From an uncultured Bacteroidota bacterium (lineage in GTDB: Bacteria > Bacteroidota > Bacteroidia > Chitinophagales > Chitinophagaceae), in NCBI GenBank assembly GCA_903887005.1, contig CAISOH010000026.1, positions 1 through 37,167 of the forward strand: a stretch of DNA of 37,167 nt. Direction: 5' to 3'. This document shows, one piece after another, positions 22,925 to 35,026 of the stretch. Made by a program: the position numbers and the translations under genes. Positions within the stretch are counted from its first letter, which is position 1, and each line of letters starts with the position of its first letter. Under the pieces are notes generated by a model. That model saw nothing but the letters and a program-made list of their open reading frames with translations. It was not told the origin of the DNA and made no database searches.

Positions 22925-24241
22925 ATGCACTTAATACAACAAATACTGTTTATTATTTCCTCAATTGCCGCCATATATATATTCACCAAGAAGGTTACGG
23001 AAATGCGGCGTAATATAATGCTGGGGCGTGCTGAAGACCTCAGCGACCATAAAAGTGAACGCTGGAAAAACATGGCGCTCCTGGCTCTTGGACAAAAAAA
23101 GATGTTCAAAAGACCGTTACCCGCTTTGCTGCACCTTGCCGTTTATGCGGGGTTTATCATCATCAATATTGAGATACTGGAAATATTTCTGGATGGAGCG
23201 TTTGGTATGCACCGTTTGTTCGTGCCAGTAATCGGCCCGGATTTGTATTCATTCCTGATTGGATTCTTTGAAATTCTCGCATCAATGGTGCTGATAGCGT
23301 GTGTCATATTTCTGATACGCAGAAATATCCTGAAAGTGAAGCGTTTCAATATGAAAGAGCTAAACGGCTGGCCACGCGAAGACGCTAATATTATCCTGAT
23401 TACAGAGGTAATACTCATGAGCCTGTTCCTGACCATGAATTCTGCCGACCTTGCATTGCAAAGCCATAATGCCGAACATTATACACATACAGCAACATTC
23501 TGGATAACCGGTAATTTTGCCGGTATGTTTTCCGGCCTTTCAGATGGCACATTGATGGCTATTGAGCGTGGCTGCTGGTGGCTGCATATCCTGGGCGTGT
23601 TCTTTTTCCTCAACTATCTGCCCTACTCCAAGCACTTCCATGTGATACTTGCATTCCCTAACGCCTACTATTCCAAACTGATACCGCAGGGCGAAATAAA
23701 GAATATGCCGGAAATACAGAACGAGGTACTGTATATGATGGAGCCGGATAAAGCCCCGGCAACCTCTGCTGAAACGGAACAAAAGCGCTTCGGAGCTAAG
23801 GATGTTATGGACCTTAGCTGGAAAAACCTGCTGGATGCATACTCCTGCACCGAGTGTGGACGATGCACCGCAGTATGCCCCGCTAACCTCACCGGCAAGA
23901 AACTATCTCCCCGCAAAATAATGATGGATACCCGCGACCGCCTGGAAGAAGTGGGTAAGAATATTAACCTCAATAAAGAGTTTAAAGATGATGGAAAATC
24001 TTTACTGAAGGACTATATAACAATAGAAGAACTCCGGGCCTGCACCACCTGCCAGGCATGTGTAGAAGCCTGCCCGGTAACTATTGATCCAATATCTATT
24101 ATCATGCAATTACGCCGCAACTTAGTAATGGAAGAAAGCAATGCCCCGCAGGAATGGAATATGATGTTTGGAAACATAGAAAACAACATGGCACCCTGGA
24201 AATTTAGTCCTGATGACAGGGATGCGTGGGTGAATAGTTAA
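22925..24241 (+). CDS. HdrD/HdrC-like membrane iron-sulfur protein
   Basis: A 438-residue inner-membrane electron-transfer protein. About five hydrophobic segments lie in residues 1-245 (for example 4-20, 66-88, 108-131, 155-170, 216-232), similar to the NarI/HdrE-like membrane domain. The cytoplasmic domain holds two [4Fe-4S] sites, C308-x2-C311-x2-C314-x3-C318 and C373-x2-C376-x2-C379-x3-C383, each followed by Pro. Such proteins pair with an HdrB-like subunit holding CCG domains. That partner begins at 26550, separated by an inserted ATPase/HNH pair. In Bacteroidota the two genes are generally adjacent (established pattern, recalled and not checked here). The electron donor and acceptor are unknown. 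Confidence 0.85.
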   Translation: MHLIQQILFIISSIAAIYIFTKKVTEMRRNIMLGRAEDLSDHKSERWKNMALLALGQKKMFKRPLPALLHLAVYAGFIIINIEILEIFLDGAFGMHRLFVPVIGPDLYSFLIGFFEILASMVLIACVIFLIRRNILKVKRFNMKELNGWPREDANIILITEVILMSLFLTMNSADLALQSHNAEHYTHTATFWITGNFAGMFSGLSDGTLMAIERGCWWLHILGVFFFLNYLPYSKHFHVILAFPNAYYSKLIPQGEIKNMPEIQNEVLYMMEPDKAPATSAETEQKRFGAKDVMDLSWKNLLDAYSCTECGRCTAVCPANLTGKKLSPRKIMMDTRDRLEEVGKNINLNKEFKDDGKSLLKDYITIEELRACTTCQACVEACPVTIDPISIIMQLRRNLVMEESNAPQEWNMMFGNIENNMAPWKFSPDDRDAWVNS

Positions 24242-24243
24242 TG

Positions 24244-24275
24244 GCTCAATGGCTTAATTGCTCAATGGCTTAATT
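24244..24275 (+). repeat. Perfect 16-bp tandem duplication
   Basis: GCTCAATGGCTTAATT occurs twice in a row three bases after the stop of the HdrD-like gene, at the left edge of the inserted ATPase/HNH module. It could be a boundary scar or simple spacer repetition. Confidence 0.7.
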
Positions 24276-24329
24276 AATGTGAAAATGTGAAGAAAATTTT
24301 AAGGTAATTTTACTTTTCAAAGAATTAAA

Positions 24330-25745
24330 ATGGCTGAGGAAAATAAGGGTATATATTTTACTGAACTGACACTCGAAAACGTAAGGTGTTTTGGAGATAA
24401 AGCTGTTTTGAAATTAAGTAATGATAAAGGCGATTGGAGCAGGTGGAATGTGATATTGGGGGATAATGGAACAGGGAAAACCACTTTATTGCAATGTCTA
24501 GCAGGAATGGAATTACAATTAGATTCAGTTTTAAATGATGATGTAAATCTCGATTTCCAAGATCACTCAAAAAATGAATGGAGTCCGACAATTTTTTTAA
24601 ACAGCAAAACTTTTTTTTACAATACGAAATATAACGACGTTTCCGAGTATAGAAGTAAATCCTTTGTTTCAACAGAGACTATACGAGTTTTAGTAAAAGC
24701 CGATGTATTTAGCGAAGAAACGTCAAATAATGTACAAATTGGATTTGGAAATTACAATTCTCTATGGAGAATTAATTGGCGCATATCCACTAAAGTAGAA
24801 GCATTTAAAAATTTATTTATTTTAGGATATGGGGCAAACAGATCTATAGATTTCCAAATTTTATCTGAGAAAGAAATCGAACCGGAAAATTCTAAAACTT
24901 TATTTGATGAAGAAGCAAAACTTATTAATGCTGAAGAGTGGCTTTATCAGATGGAATTTGCTGCAAGTAGAGAATCGGAAATTAAAAAGGAAGCAATTGA
25001 AAAACGTGATTTAATTATTAGTTGCCTTAAAAATATTTTACCAGATATCACCGAGATAAGGTTTAAAGAACCGACAACAATTGATAAGCCTATCCCTCTT
25101 CTTGAATTCAAAACTCTTTATGGATGGGTAAGTATAAAAGAGTTGAGTTTTGGCTACAAAACTATGGTTGCATGGATAGTTGATGTAGCTGCAAGAATGT
25201 TTAAGAGGTATTCAAATTCTGATAACCCGTTGGAAGAACCAGTGGTTATACTTGTTGATGAAATAGACCTGCACCTACATCCCAAATGGCAAAGGCAGAT
25301 TTTTGACTTTTTGGAAAAGCGTTTTCCAAGAGCTCAATTCATTGTTACTGCTCACAGCCCGCTCATAGTGCAAAGTGCGCCTAAAGATGCTAATATTATT
25401 GTGCTCAAAAAGGAAAAAGTTGGAGATGAGTATGTGGTGAAAATTGATAACGATGTAGAATCTGTGAGGAACTGGCGTATAGACCAGATAATGAGTAGTG
25501 ATATTTTCGGATTGAACACTTCACGTAATCCTGAAATAGAAATGCAAATGTTAGAACGAAAAAAATTGTTACAAAGAAACGATCTAAATGAAGATGAAAA
25601 GAAAAGATTAGATGAACTGAATGAAATATCTTATAATTTACCCACGGCAGATAACCCATCTGATATTGAAGCAATGGAAATCATTAGAAAAGCGGCCACA
25701 TTTTTAAAGAATAAACAAAACGGGAATGATACAAATCAGAAATAA
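24330..25745 (+). CDS. AAA family ATPase of a Septu-type (PtuA-like) defence module
   Basis: A 471-residue SMC/OLD-like ATPase. Walker A is G44DNGTGKT51, the ABC-type signature is LSFGYKT at 272-278, Walker B is VVILVDEID at 305-313, and the switch histidine is TAHS at 340-343. The tail (about 385-471) is charged and helical (EMQMLERKKLLQ, EDEKKRLDELNE), like the ATPases of Septu and retron Ec78. Its stop overlaps the start of the downstream HNH gene by 20 bases. In known Septu systems PtuA and PtuB form a complex that restricts phage; this role is inferred from domains and gene order. The module is less GC-rich than its flanking genes, consistent with recent insertion. Confidence 0.85.
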   Translation: MAEENKGIYFTELTLENVRCFGDKAVLKLSNDKGDWSRWNVILGDNGTGKTTLLQCLAGMELQLDSVLNDDVNLDFQDHSKNEWSPTIFLNSKTFFYNTKYNDVSEYRSKSFVSTETIRVLVKADVFSEETSNNVQIGFGNYNSLWRINWRISTKVEAFKNLFILGYGANRSIDFQILSEKEIEPENSKTLFDEEAKLINAEEWLYQMEFAASRESEIKKEAIEKRDLIISCLKNILPDITEIRFKEPTTIDKPIPLLEFKTLYGWVSIKELSFGYKTMVAWIVDVAARMFKRYSNSDNPLEEPVVILVDEIDLHLHPKWQRQIFDFLEKRFPRAQFIVTAHSPLIVQSAPKDANIIVLKKEKVGDEYVVKIDNDVESVRNWRIDQIMSSDIFGLNTSRNPEIEMQMLERKKLLQRNDLNEDEKKRLDELNEISYNLPTADNPSDIEAMEIIRKAATFLKNKQNGNDTNQK

Positions 25746-26490
25746 AATTGGTTCTGTAGCTCCCAAAGTTTTAACTAATGAAGGAGTTGCAAAAACTGAT
25801 AACTATAAAACTGAATTCAACAACGGAGCAACTGAATTCAAATTTGATTCAGGGATTTATGGGCATAAAGAAGTAAAAGAAAGACTGGTAACATTGCAGC
25901 AGGGTAAATGTTGCTTTTGCGAGTCGAAAATAAGGCATATATCTTATGGTGATGTAGAACATTACAGGCCAAAAGCCGGATGGGTACAAAATAATGAGCC
26001 AATTAATAAACCTGGTTATTACTGGCTCGCTTATGATTGGGACAACTTACTGTTATCTTGCCAACTTTGCAATCAGCAATTTAAGAAGAACTACTTTCCA
26101 TTACTAACTGAAAATAGCAGGGCAAGAAATCATAATGAGGATATAAATAATGAAGACCCGTTATTCATACATCCGGCAAATGAAAACCCTGAAGAATATA
26201 TTGAGTTTAATGAAGAAATGCCAATAGCGGTTGATAATAAAATCAGGGGGACTGTAACTATTACCAATCTTGGATTAGACAGAGAACTTTTAAATGAGCA
26301 ACGAAAGAAAACTTTGAATATGGTTAGCGATATATACAATTTAGCTAAAAATTTTCCTGATAATCCACCGGAACTCAAGAAGGTAGCAAAAGATAAAATA
26401 ACCAAATACCATGTAGATTCTGGAAGAGATGAAACTGAATACGCCTCCATGCTTCGATGTTTTTTCAGAAAGAACCCTATAGATTTTTAG
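25726..26490 (+). CDS. HNH endonuclease, PtuB/TIGR02646-like, partner of the upstream ATPase
   Basis: A 254-residue nuclease. Zinc ligands are C62-x2-C65 (KCCFCESKI) and C112-x2-C115 (SCQLCNQQ). The catalytic HNH part is DVEHYRPK (H79), WDNLLL (N107) and CN (N116) with K120. This is the arrangement of the HNH family found with retron Ec78 and Septu ATPases. The gene starts within the ATPase gene, implying coupled translation and a shared complex. It would degrade or nick nucleic acid when triggered by infection; specificity cannot be told. An AT-rich spacer separates it from the HdrB-like gene. Confidence 0.87.
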   Translation: MIQIRNKIGSVAPKVLTNEGVAKTDNYKTEFNNGATEFKFDSGIYGHKEVKERLVTLQQGKCCFCESKIRHISYGDVEHYRPKAGWVQNNEPINKPGYYWLAYDWDNLLLSCQLCNQQFKKNYFPLLTENSRARNHNEDINNEDPLFIHPANENPEEYIEFNEEMPIAVDNKIRGTVTITNLGLDRELLNEQRKKTLNMVSDIYNLAKNFPDNPPELKKVAKDKITKYHVDSGRDETEYASMLRCFFRKNPIDF

Positions 26491-26549
26491 ATGAGCTTAA
26501 ATCAGTAATATTTTGAATTTTGAATTTTAACTTTTGAATTTTTTAGTTT

Positions 26550-27326
26550 ATGTCCATAAAATCAATGGCTGAATATGCGGCGAACGGAGAAACCCCGGAA
26601 ATAGTTTTTTGGGTGGGTTGTGCCGGTAGCTTCGACCAGCGTGCACAAAAAATCACTAAAGCATTTGCCCAGATACTTGATAAGGTAGGTATTAAATTTG
26701 CGATACTTGGTAAGGAAGAAATGTGTACCGGCGACCCTGCGCGCAGAGCAGGTAATGAGTTCCTGTTCCAGATGATGGCGTATAATAATATTCATACACT
26801 GAATACTTACGGCATTAAAAAGGTGGTAACGATTTGCCCGCATTGCTTTAATATCTTTAAGAATGAATATCCTGCCCTTGGAGGAAATTACGAGGTAATG
26901 CACCACACTACTTTTTTACAACAATTGATAAATGAAGGCCGCATAAAACTGAAAGACGGCGGCGCATTCAAAGGCAAAACAATCACTTATCACGATAGCT
27001 GTTACCTGGGCAGGGGCAATGGTATCTATGAAGCTCCACGCGAAGTTTTGCAGGCATTTGATACACAGCTTGTGGAAATGAAAAGCTGCCGCAGCAATGG
27101 TATGTGTTGCGGTGCAGGTGGGGCTCAGATGTTCAAAGAAGAAGAAGCAGGTACAACAAGAGTGAATTTTGAACGGGCAAATCAGGCTATGGAAACCGGA
27201 GCTACGGTAATAGCCTCCAACTGCCCGTTTTGTATGACTATGCTGACAGATGGCGTAAAGAATAAGGAAAAGGAAGATTCGGTGAAGGTGCTGGATATTG
27301 CTGAAATGGTGGCGATGTCTTTGTAA
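26550..27326 (+). CDS. HdrB-like CCG-domain iron-sulfur protein
   Basis: A 258-residue cytoplasmic protein with two cysteine-rich CCG domains, as in heterodisulfide reductase subunit B and LutA/GlpC-type redox proteins. Visible ligands are C24, C59, CPHC at 96-99, C151, C180, CCG at 186-188 and CPFC at 225-228. It should bind an unusual [4Fe-4S] cluster and work with the HdrD-like membrane protein encoded at 22925. The intervening ATPase/HNH pair breaks up what is normally a compact operon. Whether it keeps a promoter of its own in the AT-rich spacer is unclear. Confidence 0.85.
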   Translation: MSIKSMAEYAANGETPEIVFWVGCAGSFDQRAQKITKAFAQILDKVGIKFAILGKEEMCTGDPARRAGNEFLFQMMAYNNIHTLNTYGIKKVVTICPHCFNIFKNEYPALGGNYEVMHHTTFLQQLINEGRIKLKDGGAFKGKTITYHDSCYLGRGNGIYEAPREVLQAFDTQLVEMKSCRSNGMCCGAGGAQMFKEEEAGTTRVNFERANQAMETGATVIASNCPFCMTMLTDGVKNKEKEDSVKVLDIAEMVAMSL

Positions 27327-30117: not shown

Positions 30118-30897
30118 TTACAAATCCCATTCGCTCTCCAGCCACTCTTTCATTTTCAAATCTGTAAAGTCTATTTTAATGGGGACTATTGACGCAAAGC
30201 CTTCATTAAGGGCATCCACATCTGTTCCCGGCTCTTTATCCATGAATATGAATTTACCGGTCATCCAATAATAATCCTTTCCGCGCGGGTCAACCCTGTG
30301 CTCGAATTCTTCCGCCCACCTTGCATTCGCTTGCCGGCATATTTTCATGCCCTTAAATGTTTCCTTAGTAACTATCGGAATATTCACATTCAGTAAAATA
30401 TGAGGTGGCATCTTTTGGGCAAGCATCCGTTGGGTAAGGTCGCGCGCAACCATTCCTGCTACCGTAAAATCTGCGTCAAATTTATAATCCAGTAAGGACA
30501 GCCCGATAGAAGGCACCCCCTCTATGGCTGCTTCCATAGCGGCGCTCATAGTACCTGAGTAGATAATATTGATAGAATGATTGGCGCCATGGTTTATGCC
30601 GCTAAGGCATATATCGGGCCTTTTGTGCAGTATTTTATCGCGCGCCAGTTTCACACAATCGGCGGGGGTACCGCTGCACTGCCATGATTCCACTCCTTCC
30701 CCTTCAAACACATGCACCTTATTAAGCCGGAGCGGATCGCCAATAGTTATCGCATGTCCCATACCCGATTGAGGGCTATCGGGCGCTACTACAATTACCT
30801 GTCCTAAATCTTTTACCGCCTCTACCAATGCCAGAATGCCCGGAGATGTTATACCGTCATCGTTAGTAATAAGGATAACGGGCTTTTGTTTGTTCAT
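30118..30897 (-). CDS. surE: 5'/3'-nucleotidase SurE
   Basis: A 259-residue metal-dependent phosphatase acting on nucleoside monophosphates. Family motifs are ITNDDGITSPGI (metal-binding Asp pair) near residues 10-20, VVAPDSPQSGMGHAIT, SGTPADCV, and SGINHGANHSINIIYSGT (metal-binding Asn). The start is taken at the ATG at 30897 (MNKQKPVILITNDDG); an ATG 18 bases upstream would add six residues with no family support. Divergent from the second ATPase/HNH pair. Confidence 0.95.
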   Translation of the reverse strand: MNKQKPVILITNDDGITSPGILALVEAVKDLGQVIVVAPDSPQSGMGHAITIGDPLRLNKVHVFEGEGVESWQCSGTPADCVKLARDKILHKRPDICLSGINHGANHSINIIYSGTMSAAMEAAIEGVPSIGLSLLDYKFDADFTVAGMVARDLTQRMLAQKMPPHILLNVNIPIVTKETFKGMKICRQANARWAEEFEHRVDPRGKDYYWMTGKFIFMDKEPGTDVDALNEGFASIVPIKIDFTDLKMKEWLESEWDL

Positions 30898-31059
30898 GGT
30901 TAATTCAAAAGTCAAAAATCAAAATTCAAAAGAGTGGTTGATACCTCTCTAAATCATGCTACAAAGATAAGCACAATACTGGCCGTTGATAATATTATTA
31001 AGTAACCTTGCTTAGGAATCTGGCTTTAGTTATTTATCTTTATACCTTAAAATTTATCA

Positions 31060-32436
31060 ATGAAAATTTCTAAAATAGAAATTAAGGATTTTCACCAATT
31101 CAAGGATTTAACTATTGACCTGACTTATCCTAAAGGTCATGCAAAAGAGGGACAACCTTTGAGTAAGGTTTGCTTTATAGGACAAAGCGGTACAGGGAAA
31201 ACAAGTATATTGGAGTTGATTCCGAAATTCTTATATAATTACGATACACAACTCATTGAAAAATCTAATTACGACTTGAATTTAGAGAATATAGAAATCA
31301 CTGTCGTATTTGGCAACAAAAATGAATACGAAAGCAAAATAAGGTTCAACTCGCATAAAGGCAACAGAGAATATTTAAGCGGCTGGGAATGGGGTGAAAA
31401 CAAACATGCAAATGAAGAAGTAAATTATGAAATCGTTGCTGATTTTCTTGATAACAAATGGATTAATGGAACATCAACTAAGCCTATCTATTTTCCAGCA
31501 AATCTGAATTTCGATATGGAAATAAAGATGGGCGACTCTTTAATAGACACTGAAATAATTGATTTCAGTACACAAAAAGTTGCATTGGTCTGGAATTTAA
31601 TTTTAGAAAAAGTAAAAAAATATCAAGAAAAGGAACTTCAGATAAGACAGGAATTATCCAAAATCGTTGAGCAATACTCTGATAACTTAGATATCATAAG
31701 AACAGAGCTCAAAAAGCTCGAAGATTGGAAAGAAAGAGAATTTAACCCTATTAAGGATATAGCGGATCATTGTCTTGATGAATTGTTGTTACCTTTCAAG
31801 TTGAAAGTAAAAACCGAACTTGACATCAAGATAAAAGACGATATTGGATTTATCAAATTAGTAGACGTTGCTAAAAAAGAAATACCGGATAGTTTATGGA
31901 GCACAGGAACTAAACAAGTAGTTTTAAGTGCAATGCCTTTATACCTCTTAAAGCCAAATCATACTATCATATTGTTTGATGAACCGGAACGCTCTTTGTA
32001 TCCAGATATGCAACGATTTATTGTTGAATATTATTCCTCATTTACAAAAAAATGTCAATTTATTTATGCTACACATTCGCCAATTATTGCTTCCAATTTT
32101 GAACCTTGGGAAATCGTGGAGCTAAAGTTTAATGAAGCTGGAAAAATATACAGGGAACTGTATTATGATGGTGAAAACCATATTAATAATTACAAATGGA
32201 ATCCTAGGTATATGCGATGGGATGATATTCTGCAACGTATTTTCGATATGGAAAGTGATGGCAGTCCCGCACGGAAACAAAAGCTGGATGAATTAGCTAT
32301 GAATAATGTGAAATTTAAGAAACTAAAACAAGCTGGTAAAGAAGATAGCGATGAAGCTAAGAGTATCCTGAAAAATATCAGCCACTTATCCAAAGACCTT
32401 TCACAATGGGATTTAAAGAATTATGCAAAAGATTGA
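31060..32436 (+). CDS. AAA family ATPase of a second, diverged ATPase/HNH module
   Basis: A 458-residue SMC/OLD-like ATPase. Walker A is G41QSGTGKTS49, the signature region is WSTGTKQ at 280-286, Walker B is TIILFDEPE at 302-310, and the switch histidine is ATHSP at 337-341. A coiled-coil stretch lies at about 175-225. The C-terminal region (380-458) is charged and helical, analogous to PtuA tails. It shares architecture but little sequence with the ATPase at 24330, and overlaps its downstream gene by 14 bases. It is probably the motor or sensor of a defence module; this is inferred from domain order and gene pairing. Confidence 0.8.
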   Translation: MKISKIEIKDFHQFKDLTIDLTYPKGHAKEGQPLSKVCFIGQSGTGKTSILELIPKFLYNYDTQLIEKSNYDLNLENIEITVVFGNKNEYESKIRFNSHKGNREYLSGWEWGENKHANEEVNYEIVADFLDNKWINGTSTKPIYFPANLNFDMEIKMGDSLIDTEIIDFSTQKVALVWNLILEKVKKYQEKELQIRQELSKIVEQYSDNLDIIRTELKKLEDWKEREFNPIKDIADHCLDELLLPFKLKVKTELDIKIKDDIGFIKLVDVAKKEIPDSLWSTGTKQVVLSAMPLYLLKPNHTIILFDEPERSLYPDMQRFIVEYYSSFTKKCQFIYATHSPIIASNFEPWEIVELKFNEAGKIYRELYYDGENHINNYKWNPRYMRWDDILQRIFDMESDGSPARKQKLDELAMNNVKFKKLKQAGKEDSDEAKSILKNISHLSKDLSQWDLKNYAKD

Positions 32437-33076
32437 CAAAACTGCAGATAAAATCCTGTCAACAAAATATAAAAGCTGGCTGGATAAACTGATTGAAGAA
32501 AACACCATACATGATGGAAGGTACTGTTACTATTATGATGATATAGTAATGAATTTGTTCAAATGCCAGTCAGGCGTTTGCACTTATACTGAGATGTATA
32601 TTTGCCCAACAGAGTTGTATGCGAACGGGAACTGGACAAAAGGAAGATATAAAATACCGGATAATGCTGAATATAAACGAATAGACCACTTAGGTGAATT
32701 AGAGCATTTGGATGCAGAAGATAAAAAGTTGCATTACTGGAATTGGGACAATCTTTTTATGATTCATGCAAAAATAAACAGCATTAAATCTGATGCTGTA
32801 TTAGTGCCTTATTTAAAACCCGACTTAGAAGATTATTTTCCTGAAAAATATTTTGATTACGATGATGAGACTCACCGTTTCATACCCAATACGGATATAG
32901 AAGACCCTATTATTACTAAAGAAATTCAAAACATGATTGACAAGGTATTATACCTCAATCATGGTGTGGTAAGAAATGAAAGAAGGGACTATATCAATGT
33001 TATCAGGGACAAAAGAGAAAGAGGCGAACCCTATGTTATTGATAGATTCTTCACTTCCATTAAATGGACGCTCTAA
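32423..33076 (+). CDS. Diverged HNH-like nuclease partner with a degenerate zinc site
   Basis: A 217-residue protein. It aligns by eye with the PtuB-type nuclease at 25726: GVCTYTE (50-56) against KCCFCE, GELEHLD (91-97) against GDVEHYR, WNWDNLFM (106-113) against YDWDNLLL, and HAKINSIKSD (115-124) against CQLCNQQFKK. The catalytic H95 and the N110 and N119 positions are kept, but three of the four zinc-ligand cysteines are lost (only C53 remains). It may be a zinc-free HNH nuclease or an inactive derivative. Coupled to the upstream ATPase by a 14-base overlap and followed by a strong terminator. Function is inferred. Confidence 0.65.
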   Translation: MQKIDKTADKILSTKYKSWLDKLIEENTIHDGRYCYYYDDIVMNLFKCQSGVCTYTEMYICPTELYANGNWTKGRYKIPDNAEYKRIDHLGELEHLDAEDKKLHYWNWDNLFMIHAKINSIKSDAVLVPYLKPDLEDYFPEKYFDYDDETHRFIPNTDIEDPIITKEIQNMIDKVLYLNHGVVRNERRDYINVIRDKRERGEPYVIDRFFTSIKWTL

Positions 33077-33245: not shown

Positions 33246-33277
33246 GGCTGTCTCTTGTGTTTGAGACAGCCCTTTTT
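33246..33277 (+). terminator. Rho-independent terminator of the second ATPase/HNH module
   Basis: A 9-bp perfect stem GGCTGTCTC/GAGACAGCC with an 8-base loop followed by C-C-T5. It lies 170 bases after the nuclease stop, and convergent ilvE ends 23 bases further on. Confidence 0.85.
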
Positions 33278-33299: not shown

Positions 33300-34370
33300 T
33301 TACACACTTACAGCCCAGCCATGAATATCAGTCTTGCGGCCATAGCGGATGTCTGCCAATTCCTTTTTGAGCCAGTTGGCCACTTCCCATGTTTCCATTG
33401 GAGGGAGCAGCATTTTATCTTCATGGAAGGTAAGCGCATATATGGGCGCTATGGATGCGGCGGTGCCGGTACCAAAGGCCTCTTTCAGTTGCCCGCTTCT
33501 GTAAGCTGCTTCTATTTCATCTATGCTTAACGGACGCTCTTCAACTATGATGCCCTTCTCGCGGAGCAAGGTAATAACACTGTCGCGGGTAACGCCTGCC
33601 AATATGGTATCCTGCGTAATATCAGGTGTTATTACCTTATCCCCTATTACAAAGAACACATTCATAGTGCCGATTTCCTGCACATATTTATGCTCAAAAC
33701 CATCTGTCCAGAGTATCTGGTCATAGCCCATTTTCTTTATCTGCTGTGTGGGATACATGCTCATGCCATAGTTGCCTGCCGCCTTGGTGAAGCCTATGCC
33801 ACCGGGGAAAGCTCGTACGTACTTGTCCTGCACATAGATAGATACCGGGTGATTGTAATAAGGCCCTGCCGGGCTGGTAATGATCATGAACATGAATTTT
33901 TCTGCCGGGCGAACACCGATAAACTCATCTATCGCCAGCATGAAGGGGCGGATATACAAGGAGGACTCCTCTCCGGTTGGTATCCAGTCGCGGTCAAGGT
34001 CAATTAACTTGCGCATACCTTCAATAAATATGTACTCAGGGACTTCCGGCATGGCCATACGCTCTGCGGAGCGGTTCATACGGGTCCAGTTATCATAAGG
34101 ACGGAATATGAGCGGATTGCCTTCCGGGTCTTTATATGCCTTGACGCCTTCAAATATCGCCTGGCCATAATGAAAAAACGTAGTCGCCGGGCTAAACGTC
34201 AGATCATGGAATGGCATTATTTCCGGTTGTTTCCAAACGCCATCTTCATAATATGCAACCAACATGTGGTCAGAATATGTTTTACCGAACTGAATATTAG
34301 AAGGGTCCAACTCGCCAATCCGGCTATTTTCCACTTTACTAACCTTAATGTCTAACGCAGTTACGATCAT
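33300..34370 (-). CDS. ilvE: Branched-chain amino acid aminotransferase
   Basis: A 356-residue PLP enzyme (fold type IV) that transaminates Leu, Ile and Val with 2-oxoglutarate. Features are FHYGQAIFEGVKAYK, NRSAERM, the PLP lysine in GGIGFTKAAGNYG (K196 in this numbering), QEIGTMNVFFV, LAGVTRDSV and EAFGTGTAASI, all standard for the BCAT-II type. The start is set at the ATG giving MIVTALDIKV; one three codons upstream is possible. Stands alone on the minus strand. Confidence 0.95.
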   Translation of the reverse strand: MIVTALDIKVSKVENSRIGELDPSNIQFGKTYSDHMLVAYYEDGVWKQPEIMPFHDLTFSPATTFFHYGQAIFEGVKAYKDPEGNPLIFRPYDNWTRMNRSAERMAMPEVPEYIFIEGMRKLIDLDRDWIPTGEESSLYIRPFMLAIDEFIGVRPAEKFMFMIITSPAGPYYNHPVSIYVQDKYVRAFPGGIGFTKAAGNYGMSMYPTQQIKKMGYDQILWTDGFEHKYVQEIGTMNVFFVIGDKVITPDITQDTILAGVTRDSVITLLREKGIIVEERPLSIDEIEAAYRSGQLKEAFGTGTAASIAPIYALTFHEDKMLLPPMETWEVANWLKKELADIRYGRKTDIHGWAVSV

Positions 34371-34489
34371 AATGCCCAAATTAAATTAATATTGTAAAGA
34401 TTATTTTTGCAAATAAACAACTTTTTTGGGGAAACCTTTATGATGGCGGTCAACTTTCGGTTTTTGAGATGATGCATTATTAGGGGAGA

Positions 34490-34552: not shown

Positions 34553-35026
34553 ATGGAATATATTAATATTATTAAAACAGACATTGTTGCAAACAAACAT
34601 GATGTGTTTTGGGAAGATATTTCTTCCTTTATTGACAATGCTAGTCCAAGGCCGGTACTTATTATCGTAAATGACTGCGAACAAGGGAGTGCAGAAAACC
34701 TTCAATTGCAGAAAATGCTGGATGCCTGCAGGCTGCAACCTGAACAATTTAATATTATCAGGCTGCAAAAAGACGATCAGGTTGCCTGGCATCAATTGCG
34801 GGAGCGTCTTGATCCCAACATTATATTTTTAATAGGCATTATGCCCATACAGTTAGGTATATCCGCTTTTTTCAGGCTGAATGCTCCTAATAGTTTTAAC
34901 GACAGGATATGGTTGCCAACACTTGATATTGCTGAATTGGAGAAACATGCGGATATAAAAAAACAATTATGGATTAATGGGATAAAGCCTGTTTTTATTG
35001 ATAAGCCTCTCCCCCTTCGACAATAG
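34553..35026 (+). CDS. Conserved-looking small protein, function unknown
   Basis: A 157-residue cytoplasmic protein with alternating strands and helices: PVLIIVND (strand), LQLQKMLDACRL (helix), FNIIRL (strand), RLDPNIIFLIGIMPIQLGI (strand and helix), then KKQLWINGIKPVFI. The pattern recalls small replisome-associated or glycosylase-like folds, but no motif allows a name. No signal peptide. Followed by a hairpin at 35070 and recQ; co-transcription is uncertain. Confidence 0.7.
   Translation: MEYINIIKTDIVANKHDVFWEDISSFIDNASPRPVLIIVNDCEQGSAENLQLQKMLDACRLQPEQFNIIRLQKDDQVAWHQLRERLDPNIIFLIGIMPIQLGISAFFRLNAPNSFNDRIWLPTLDIAELEKHADIKKQLWINGIKPVFIDKPLPLRQ

What the first reader, a model, noticed from the sequence alone, without database searches (positions are those of the whole stretch)
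31060..33076. Second ATPase/HNH-like pair with three of four zinc cysteines lost
The pair has the same order, sizes and start-stop overlap as the Septu-like module 6 kb away, yet the sequences are very different. The nuclease partner keeps the His and Asn positions (GELEHLD, WDNLF, N119) but replaces CxxC with CTYT and the second CxxC with HAKI. This could be an undescribed, zinc-independent branch of the ATPase-HNH defence class. The protein has diverged enough that a simple domain search may miss it.
Basis: partly seen in the sequence, partly recalled or inferred. Interest (0 to 1): 0.68.

Follow-up and report, generated by a model that had tools for sequence, protein, structure and literature searches.

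The report
Septu-type defence pair lacking zinc knuckle
This is a two-gene bacterial defence module of the known Septu kind (an ATPase plus an HNH nuclease) whose nuclease belongs to a widespread branch that keeps its predicted active site but has lost the zinc-binding knuckle found in the usual nuclease.

Summary
Window 31060-32436 / 32423-33076 encodes an ATPase (458 aa) overlapping a 217-aa partner that keeps one of four zinc cysteines. The partner has no Pfam match, but its model (pLDDT 95.9) matches retron-Ec78 PtuB (Z 15.6, 174 of 217 residues; best non-PtuB row Z 4.5); profile comparison with zinc-bearing PtuBs gives 99.3%. The ATPase matches PtuA best (Z 24.4; PADLOC PtuA E 4.8e-66). 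So this is a divergent PtuAB (Septu) pair with no retron beside it.

The loss is not local decay. In the window and 80 relatives C53, H95, N110 and N119 are kept in 81 of 81; position 56 is T in 80, S in 1. 78 of 80 relatives have the ATPase upstream; the other two start at contig ends. The sampled branch is one clade (100/100).

It is neither unique nor wholly unseen: PADLOC profiles PDLC00274/PDLC00347 already cover another pair with the same CxxT state, and the tree needs several changes of zinc state. I found no text on zinc-less PtuB in the searches made. Zinc content, target and defence are untested. New variant of a known kind.

The parts
31060..32436 (+). PtuA-type ABC/SMC-like ATPase, 458 aa
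   Evidence: PADLOC PtuA PDLC00274 E 4.8e-66; AlphaFold model pLDDT 90.1; VIA Z 24.4 to PtuA 8ee4_E, 24.2 to Septu 8eea_D with 377 residues aligned
31180..31203 (+). Walker A of the ATPase, GQSGTGKT (residues 41-48)
   Evidence: read; G41, G46 and K47 invariant in 60 of 60 rows
31900..31917 (+). ABC signature-like STGTKQ (residues 281-286)
   Evidence: read; S281 and G283 invariant in 60 of 60; motif name recalled
31966..31986 (+). Walker B, IILFDEP (residues 303-309)
   Evidence: read; D307 invariant in 60 of 60, E308 at least 90%
32071..32079 (+). THS switch (H-loop-like), residues 338-340
   Evidence: invariant in 60 of 60; motif name recalled
32423..32436 (+). 14-nt overlap of the two genes
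   Evidence: in relatives 45 of 78 pairs overlap and 31 have a gap of 0-30 nt
32423..33076 (+). PtuB-type HNH nuclease without zinc knuckle, 217 aa
   Evidence: model pLDDT 95.9; VIA Z 15.6 to Ec78 PtuB 9u9y_H; hhalign 99.3% against zinc-bearing PtuBs
32579..32593 (+). CTYTE (residues 53-57): first knuckle with Cys53 kept and the second Cys replaced by Thr56
   Evidence: C53 81 of 81, T56 80 of 81 and 1 S, E57 81 of 81
32600..32692 (+). insertion between first knuckle and catalytic His (about residues 60-90)
   Evidence: C53 to H95 is 42 residues in the window and 34-54 in the 31 window-type tree rows, against 13-22 in the 44 other rows, which include zinc-less L092 and L093
32705..32707 (+). 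predicted catalytic His95 of HNH
   Evidence: 81 of 81; aligned with the EH of zinc-bearing PtuBs
32750..32752 (+). HNH Asn110 (W-x-W-D-N)
   Evidence: 81 of 81
32765..32779 (+). HAKIN: site of the lost second CxxC (H115, I118), followed by the kept third HNH residue Asn119
   Evidence: column 115 is D 33, H 15 and others of 81; N119 81 of 81
33246..33271 (.). terminator-like hairpin on both strands, between the pair and the convergent gene 33300-34379
   Evidence: consensus match only
24330..26490 (+). context: first Septu module of the window, zinc-bearing (PtuA 24330-25745, PtuB 25726-26490)
   Evidence: PADLOC PtuA PDLC00304 1.1e-140 and PtuB PDLC00339 4.2e-86

Best explanation
The pair is a PtuAB (Septu type I-like) anti-phage module from a distinct branch. 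SHOWN by computation: the ATPase has the PtuA fold including the C-terminal part; the partner has the PtuB fold from end to end; the genes are almost always adjacent; the predicted HNH active site (H95, N110, N119) is invariant; three of the four zinc ligands are gone while C53 stays. INFERRED: the ATPase oligomerises and holds the nuclease inactive, infection releases or activates it, and the HNH site with one catalytic metal cuts nucleic acid (tRNA or DNA, as reported for characterised PtuABs) and so stops phage growth. INFERRED: the knuckle was structural, and its place is taken by packing around C53/T56. The extra loop 60-90 may help but is not needed, since L092 and L093 have no such loop and no knuckle either.
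For: Partner: Foldseek ranks 1-8 are all chains of PtuB or its TIGR02646 name in retron entries, best E 3.5e-5; VIA Z 15.6, rmsd 3.1, 174 of 217 aligned, against Z 4.5 for the best non-PtuB row, a Cas9 HNH; hhalign 99.3%, E 1.6e-20; of the 75 rows of A3, 75 match PADLOC HNH_I-A and 72 PDLC00347 at E 0.001 or better, 68 match NCBIfam PtuB at 0.01 (the window's own does not). ATPase: VIA rows 1-20 all come from PtuA, Septu or PtuAB-retron entries (Z 24.4-20.3), then AriA 19.7, then SMC/Rad50 heads at 17.5 and below. Pairing: 78 of 80 loci, the other two at contig ends; overlap or gap of at most 30 nt in 76 of 78. Active site 81 of 81. Branch: 31 of 31 sampled rows in one clade, 100/100. Zinc ligands go together: in the 75 tree rows, 35 of 35 with the second Cys have two or more Cys in the stretch after N110; 40 of 40 without it have one or none; all 75 keep H and N. 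Function by kinship: in Septu EcB88, PtuA Walker K43/D316 and PtuB H75/N91 are needed for defence and the system cuts tRNA-Tyr (PMC13096335: start of abstract, passages); retron-Eco7 PtuAB depletes tRNA-Tyr (PMC11555353, passages). Acquired DNA: G+C 0.32-0.33 against 0.42-0.45 in the kilobases beside it.
Against: No defence, cleavage or metal data are known to me for this branch. NCBIfam PtuB matches the window protein only at E 0.02 and 14.6 bits, far below its 150-bit cut-off. The closest PADLOC PtuB profiles match it weakly, PDLC00347 over about half its length (E 1.8e-8 and 5.8e-8). No relatives were found in the viral, plasmid or phage collections, where a mobile defence module might be expected. 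A different metal site is not ruled out: C48 (59 of 81), C61 (55 of 81) and H30 (74 of 81) are common, though none is invariant. Reported PtuAB targets are divided between DNA and tRNA, so the target cannot be read off by kinship.
Confidence: 0.85

Rival explanations
1. The partner still binds a structural metal, but at a rebuilt site made of other residues (for instance C53 with C48, C61, H30 or H115).
For: C53 is invariant although its three classical partners are gone; C48 is C in 59 of 81, C61 in 55 of 81, both in 45 of 81; H30 is H in 74 of 81.
Against: 12 of 81 have neither C48 nor C61, 14 have C48 alone and 10 have C61 alone, so the pair does not come and go together. Position 115 is H in only 15 of 81. 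C53 stays in other zinc-less or partly zinc-less rows as well (40 of 40 rows without the second Cys, 9 of them outside this branch).
Confidence: 0.12
2. The partner is a dead nuclease: the fold is kept for binding the ATPase, and the ATPase or another factor does the work.
For: Loss of a structural element, and no measured activity.
Against: H95, N110 and N119 in 81 of 81 and K122 in 80 of 81 rows, in relatives as low as 29% identical; a dead enzyme would be expected to drift here.
Confidence: 0.05
3. The module is not Septu but a separate ATPase-nuclease class, such as a PARIS-like (AriA) or OLD-like system, that took up an HNH protein.
For: The ATPase also hits AriA (1.4e-24), and AriA rows are close in fold (Z 19.7).
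Against: PtuA is better by sequence (4.8e-66 against 1.4e-24), and many PtuA rows also cover the C-terminal part (to residue 451-458) where the listed AriA rows stop near 365. The partner is PtuB-like over its whole length.
Confidence: 0.05
4. The cysteine changes are recent decay in one genome.
For: None beyond the loss itself.
Against: 80 relatives share the state and the 31 sampled rows form a single clade supported 100/100.
Confidence: 0.01

Closest known systems
PADLOC profile pair PDLC00274 (PtuA1) / PDLC00347 (PtuB1), best members L092 and L093 in Bacteroidota
   Same: Adjacent ATPase and PtuB-like partner; CAYTE with no second CxxC; the window ATPase hits PDLC00274 at 4.8e-66.
   Different: The partner is 195-196 aa and lacks the insertion before the catalytic His; the window protein scores only 31 bits to PDLC00347; the tree does not join the two groups with support.
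Zinc-bearing PDLC00351-type PtuB, also in this genome at G000:C369:6751-7350
   Same: The A3 profile reaches it at E 2.1e-11, over profile positions 87-212; it shares the (K/R)PD stretch after the HNH.
   Different: Has all four cysteines (CSFC...CHNC).
Retron Ec78/Eco7 (type I-A, Septu type II) PtuAB
   Same: Best structural match of the partner and among the best of the ATPase.
   Different: Ec78 PtuB keeps CAYC (alignment); retrons have a reverse transcriptase gene, not found here; Ec78 PtuA is 550 aa.
E. coli Septu PtuAB (8eea) and Septu EcB88
   Same: Two genes, PtuA/PtuB folds (8eea_G Z 14.4, 8eea_D Z 24.2).
   Different: Identity 16-17% on the structural alignments; the zinc state of 8eea PtuB was not read here.
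PARIS (AriA/AriB)
   Same: Related ATPase fold.
   Different: The partner here is PtuB-like HNH; AriB is a different nuclease (recalled).

Membership tests
Septu (PtuA/PtuB, type I) | PtuA-type ATPase by sequence and fold, with Walker A/B | tested here: met
Septu (PtuA/PtuB, type I) | PtuB-fold HNH partner with His and Asn active-site residues | tested here: met
Septu (PtuA/PtuB, type I) | ptuA and ptuB adjacent, same strand | tested here: met
Septu (PtuA/PtuB, type I) | No reverse transcriptase gene (this separates type I from type II/retron I-A) | tested here: met
   Window neighbours are AnmK, SurE, an aminotransferase of class IV, an ORF without Pfam match (34553-35026) and a RecQ-type helicase. 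In 78 related pairs a YxDD-like screen of ORFs over 200 aa within 1.5 kb gave two strings, a peptidase M1 and a PCMD protein; 69 of the 78 have more than 1.2 kb upstream of the ATPase. The related loci were not scanned with a reverse transcriptase model.
Septu (PtuA/PtuB, type I) | Called by PADLOC's own thresholds | not testable with these tools
   Profile matches were seen, but the thresholds are not shown by the tool
Septu (PtuA/PtuB, type I) | Anti-phage activity | not testable with these tools
   Needs an experiment
Zinc-knuckle PtuB subgroup (the common kind, not the whole family) | Four knuckle cysteines, CxxC and a second pair | tested here: not met
   One of four in the window; 35 of the 75 tree rows have them. 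Not defining for PtuB as a whole, since PADLOC's PtuB profile PDLC00347 has its best members without it.
NCBIfam NF041761, retron Ec78 PtuB | Curated cut-off of 150 bits | tested here: not met
   14.6 bits; only 1 of 247 Bacteroidota genomes holds a match over the cut-off
Retron type I-A / Septu type II | Reverse transcriptase and msDNA gene beside ptuAB | tested here: not met
   No reverse transcriptase among the window neighbours; msDNA not searched
PARIS | AriB-type partner | tested here: not met
   The partner is PtuB-like; its 12 PADLOC matches are HNH_I-A and PtuB only

The most novel reading that the evidence does not exclude
Zinc-less PtuBs are a functionally separate kind of Septu nuclease. 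C to T at the second knuckle cysteine, together with loss of the second pair, arose several times while the first cysteine was always kept, so that cysteine has a second job (packing, redox sensing or substrate contact) unmasked when zinc is lost. The branch then differs in target or trigger, and its TPR-fused PtuAs are direct sensors of phage proteins.
Probability: 0.15. Interest if true: 0.62.

Novelty: new variant of a known kind. Interest (0 to 1): 0.42.

Why it matters
It suggests that the knuckle of a widespread defence nuclease is dispensable and has changed state more than once, sparing one cysteine and the HNH residues in every row examined. That gives a ready natural experiment on what the zinc knuckle does. 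It also gives a signature (QxGxCAYTE ... [ED]H[FYL] ... WxN ... NxxK ... KPD) by which proteins without a Pfam match can be annotated as PtuB-like. For surveys it means such Septu pairs are missed where only Pfam or the NCBIfam PtuB cut-off is used.

Tried and rejected
Searched and found nothing: relatives in IMG/VR viral contigs, plasmids and phages. No match there is not evidence of absence elsewhere.

Empty-site test: I looked for relatives in which the genes flanking the pair are neighbours. The SurE gene 30118-30915 is present in 34 of 35 genomes of the genus; 30 of these places became loci, one of them the window's own. In none of the other 29 did the aminotransferase gene 33300-34379 show within the 1.5 kb or less held beside SurE. 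In five of the six loci I read, the next gene looked like a signal peptide peptidase (name recalled); in the sixth, L218, it did not. So the exact insertion could not be shown.

Considered and dropped: a rebuilt zinc site from C48/C61 (no joint conservation); recent decay; a three-gene system with two nucleases (L025 and L027 carry a second zinc-bearing ATPase/nuclease module beside the zinc-less one, so I read them as neighbouring modules).

Limits: the 22 zinc-bearing PtuBs of alignment A5 were picked by me for having the knuckle, so that their four cysteines are invariant is no independent result. The tree has 75 rows picked by hand, 31 of 81 window-type and 44 others from the 141 distinct ORFs. 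The bootstrap had not settled and several long branches meet. Changes have no direction, and the zinc states were assigned by me from the alignment. For the zinc-bearing label the best tree needs 6 changes and starred branches alone force 3; zinc-less against the rest needs 5 on the best tree. A3 leaves out 5 truncated rows (L053, L075, L079, L080, L084) and L030, near-identical to L029.

Papers not held, so not read: Li et al. 2024 on PtuA/PtuB, a retron I-A structure paper and Retron-Septu in Science; I know them only from citations in other papers. Whether they report zinc in PtuB I could not check. 'No text found on zinc-less PtuB' rests on searches over one open-licence library; of the papers listed I read passages of seven and of the rest the listings only.

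Full report
WHAT IS THERE. Two genes on the + strand, 31060-32436 (458 aa) and 32423-33076 (217 aa), overlap by 14 nt. They sit between two genes on the other strand, SurE (30118-30915) and a class IV aminotransferase (33300-34379). G+C is 0.32-0.33 over the pair and 0.42-0.45 in the kilobases beside it, which fits acquired DNA. A hairpin with T tails on both strands lies at 33246-33271, between the pair and its convergent neighbour (a consensus match only).

THE ATPASE. It matches PADLOC's PtuA profile PDLC00274 at E 4.8e-66 and AriA at 1.4e-24. The model made from 60 aligned rows has mean pLDDT 90.1. Its 20 best VIA rows come from PtuA, Septu or PtuAB-retron entries (Z 24.4 down to 20.3), then AriA (19.7), then SMC and Rad50 heads (17.5 and below). 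Many of the PtuA rows, 8eea_D among them, are aligned to residue 451-458; the top row 8ee4_E ends at 404 and the AriA rows near 365. Lysine of Walker A, aspartate of Walker B, S and G of the signature-like STGTKQ, and THS are invariant in 60 of 60.

THE PARTNER. Pfam gives nothing; PADLOC gives weak PtuB matches (HNH_I-A 1.8e-8, PDLC00347 5.8e-8); NCBIfam's PtuB scores 14.6 bits against a cut-off of 150. Its relatives do better: of 75 rows, 75 match HNH_I-A and 72 PDLC00347 at E 0.001 or better, and 68 match NCBIfam PtuB at 0.01. The fold agrees: pLDDT 95.9, Foldseek ranks 1-8 all PtuB chains, VIA Z 15.6, rmsd 3.1, 174 of 217 residues against Ec78 PtuB, and Z 4.5 for the best row that is not PtuB. 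A profile of 75 rows against 22 zinc-bearing PtuBs gives 99.3%, E 1.6e-20, 175 columns.

THE ZINC KNUCKLE. In the window protein C53 is kept; T56, H115 and I118 stand at the other three places. Over the window and 80 relatives: C53 81 of 81, Y55 81, T56 80 (one S), E57 81, H95 81, N110 81, N119 81, K122 80. Position 115 varies (D 33, H 15, others). In the 75-row tree set the ligands are lost together: 35 of 35 rows with the second cysteine have two or more in the stretch after N110, 40 of 40 without it have one or none, and all 40 keep the first cysteine. H and N of HNH are present in all 75. Nine of the 40 lie outside the window's branch.

THE INSERTION. From C53 to H95 there are 42 residues in the window and 34-54 (median 38) in the 31 window-type rows, against 13-22 (median 17) in the 44 other rows, zinc-bearing or not. 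So the insertion marks this branch but does not go with zinc loss in general.

BIAS. The 80 relatives came from a scan for two peptide patterns, one of which contains C[AT]YTE (151 stretches, 90 relatives, 80 kept). The other pattern does not contain it, and all 80 rows have the motif (one with S for T). Searches without patterns agree. Among 99 related genomes 6 have a match, the window's own included, and the other 5 are CAYTE. Among 247 Bacteroidota genomes the close matches are the window, G193, and two in G284; the G193 copy and one of the G284 copies are CAYTE, the second G284 copy holds a stop and was not read. The weaker rows there are zinc-bearing PtuBs (G000:C369, G122:C4) and other zinc-less ones (G248, G332).

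PAIRING. 78 of 80 loci have the ATPase upstream; in L029 and L049 the gene starts 132 and 0 bases from the contig end. Of 78, 45 overlap, 31 have a gap of 0-30 nt, and two have 128 and 249 nt. Some of the 78 ATPase reading frames are cut by a contig end or are short or split (L015, L026, L032, L069).

SPREAD. The 80 loci are Bacteroidota 62, Campylobacterota 7, Pseudomonadota 3, Thermodesulfobacteriota 2, Aminicenantes 4, uncultured 2. The 31 sampled rows form one clade, support 100/100.

NOT ALONE. PADLOC's PDLC00274 has its best members in L092 (628 bits) and L093 (538 bits); their partners are PDLC00347 (308 and 241 bits), 196 and 195 aa, with CAYTE and no second CxxC. Other rows are zinc-less (L109, L139, L107) or partly so (L192, L193, L195, L201). 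The tree needs 5 changes between zinc-less and the rest; for the zinc-bearing label it needs 6, of which starred branches force 3. Direction cannot be told, and long branches make some places unsure.

TWO MODULES, ONE SITE. The window's other module (24330-26490) is an ordinary zinc-bearing Septu from a distant part of the tree, so the two are not recent copies. It lies between an iron-sulphur (Fer4) gene, 22925-24241, and a CCG-domain gene, 26550-27326. In genome G094 the zinc-less type sits between relatives of these same two genes (52% and 68% identical). Different Septu modules have thus used the same place. The window's genome has two further PtuB-like genes, C369:6751-7350 and C393:11979-12530, both zinc-bearing.

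HOW IT PROBABLY WORKS. By kinship: in Septu EcB88, changes of Walker K43/D316 in PtuA and H75/N91 in PtuB end defence, and the system cuts tRNA-Tyr in the variable loop (PMC13096335; passages, start of abstract). Retron-Eco7 PtuAB depletes tRNA-Tyr and neither protein alone stops growth (PMC11555353, passages). Others report DNA as the target (that paper's account of Li et al.; table of the review PMC12948488). I take the pair to be an ATPase-gated HNH nuclease that acts on nucleic acid during infection; gating and target are inference. The knuckle in PtuB is most likely structural, so its loss should not stop catalysis as long as H95, N110 and N119 stand; that is inference from HNH chemistry in general (recalled).

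NOVELTY. A new variant of a known kind. PADLOC's profiles already reach the ATPase and another zinc-less pair, but I found no text on zinc-less PtuB in the searches named under Tried and rejected. The key structure papers were not held, so a remark in them cannot be excluded.

Noticed in passing
L025 5679-7574 and 2-1402 (cut), L027 2260-4470, L028 3875-5998, L063 1897-3543, L067 1302-2930: In at least 5 of the 80 loci the window-type PtuA carries an N-terminal array of TPR repeats (Pfam TPR_17 6.9e-41 in L027, 1.2e-37 in L028, 8.1e-16 in L067; L025 and L063 read by eye). A search for PtuA with TPR listed one unrelated paper.
   Followed up: partly
L082 3947-6004: A window-type PtuA of 685 aa with an N-terminal extension of about 240 aa that has no Pfam match.
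   Followed up: partly
L025 2567-5657, L027 1-2103: A zinc-bearing Septu-like module (in L025 with a TPR-fused ATPase) lies beside the zinc-less one, as a tandem.
   Followed up: partly
window 22925-27326 and L011 3815-8720: The same gap between a Fer4 gene and a CCG-domain gene holds a zinc-bearing Septu in the window and a zinc-less one in G094: a shared insertion site.
   Followed up: yes
G000:C369:6751-7350 and G000:C393:11979-12530: Two further zinc-bearing PtuB-like genes in the window's genome, making at least four.
   Followed up: no
L193, L195, L201 and L192: PtuB-like proteins with partial knuckles (CAYL or CAFS with one later Cys), possible intermediates of zinc loss.
   Followed up: no
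L020/L052, L021/L057, L022/L024, L054/L069/L082: Several draft genomes carry two or three copies of the zinc-less type on different contigs, judged by accession prefix.
   Followed up: no
G284:C2:5211-5618: A copy of the zinc-less partner interrupted by a stop codon in a genome that has an intact copy elsewhere.
   Followed up: no
L094 2500-3705: A ThiF-family gene (Pfam 5e-35) lies 20 nt upstream of the ATPase of this pair, on the same strand.
   Followed up: no
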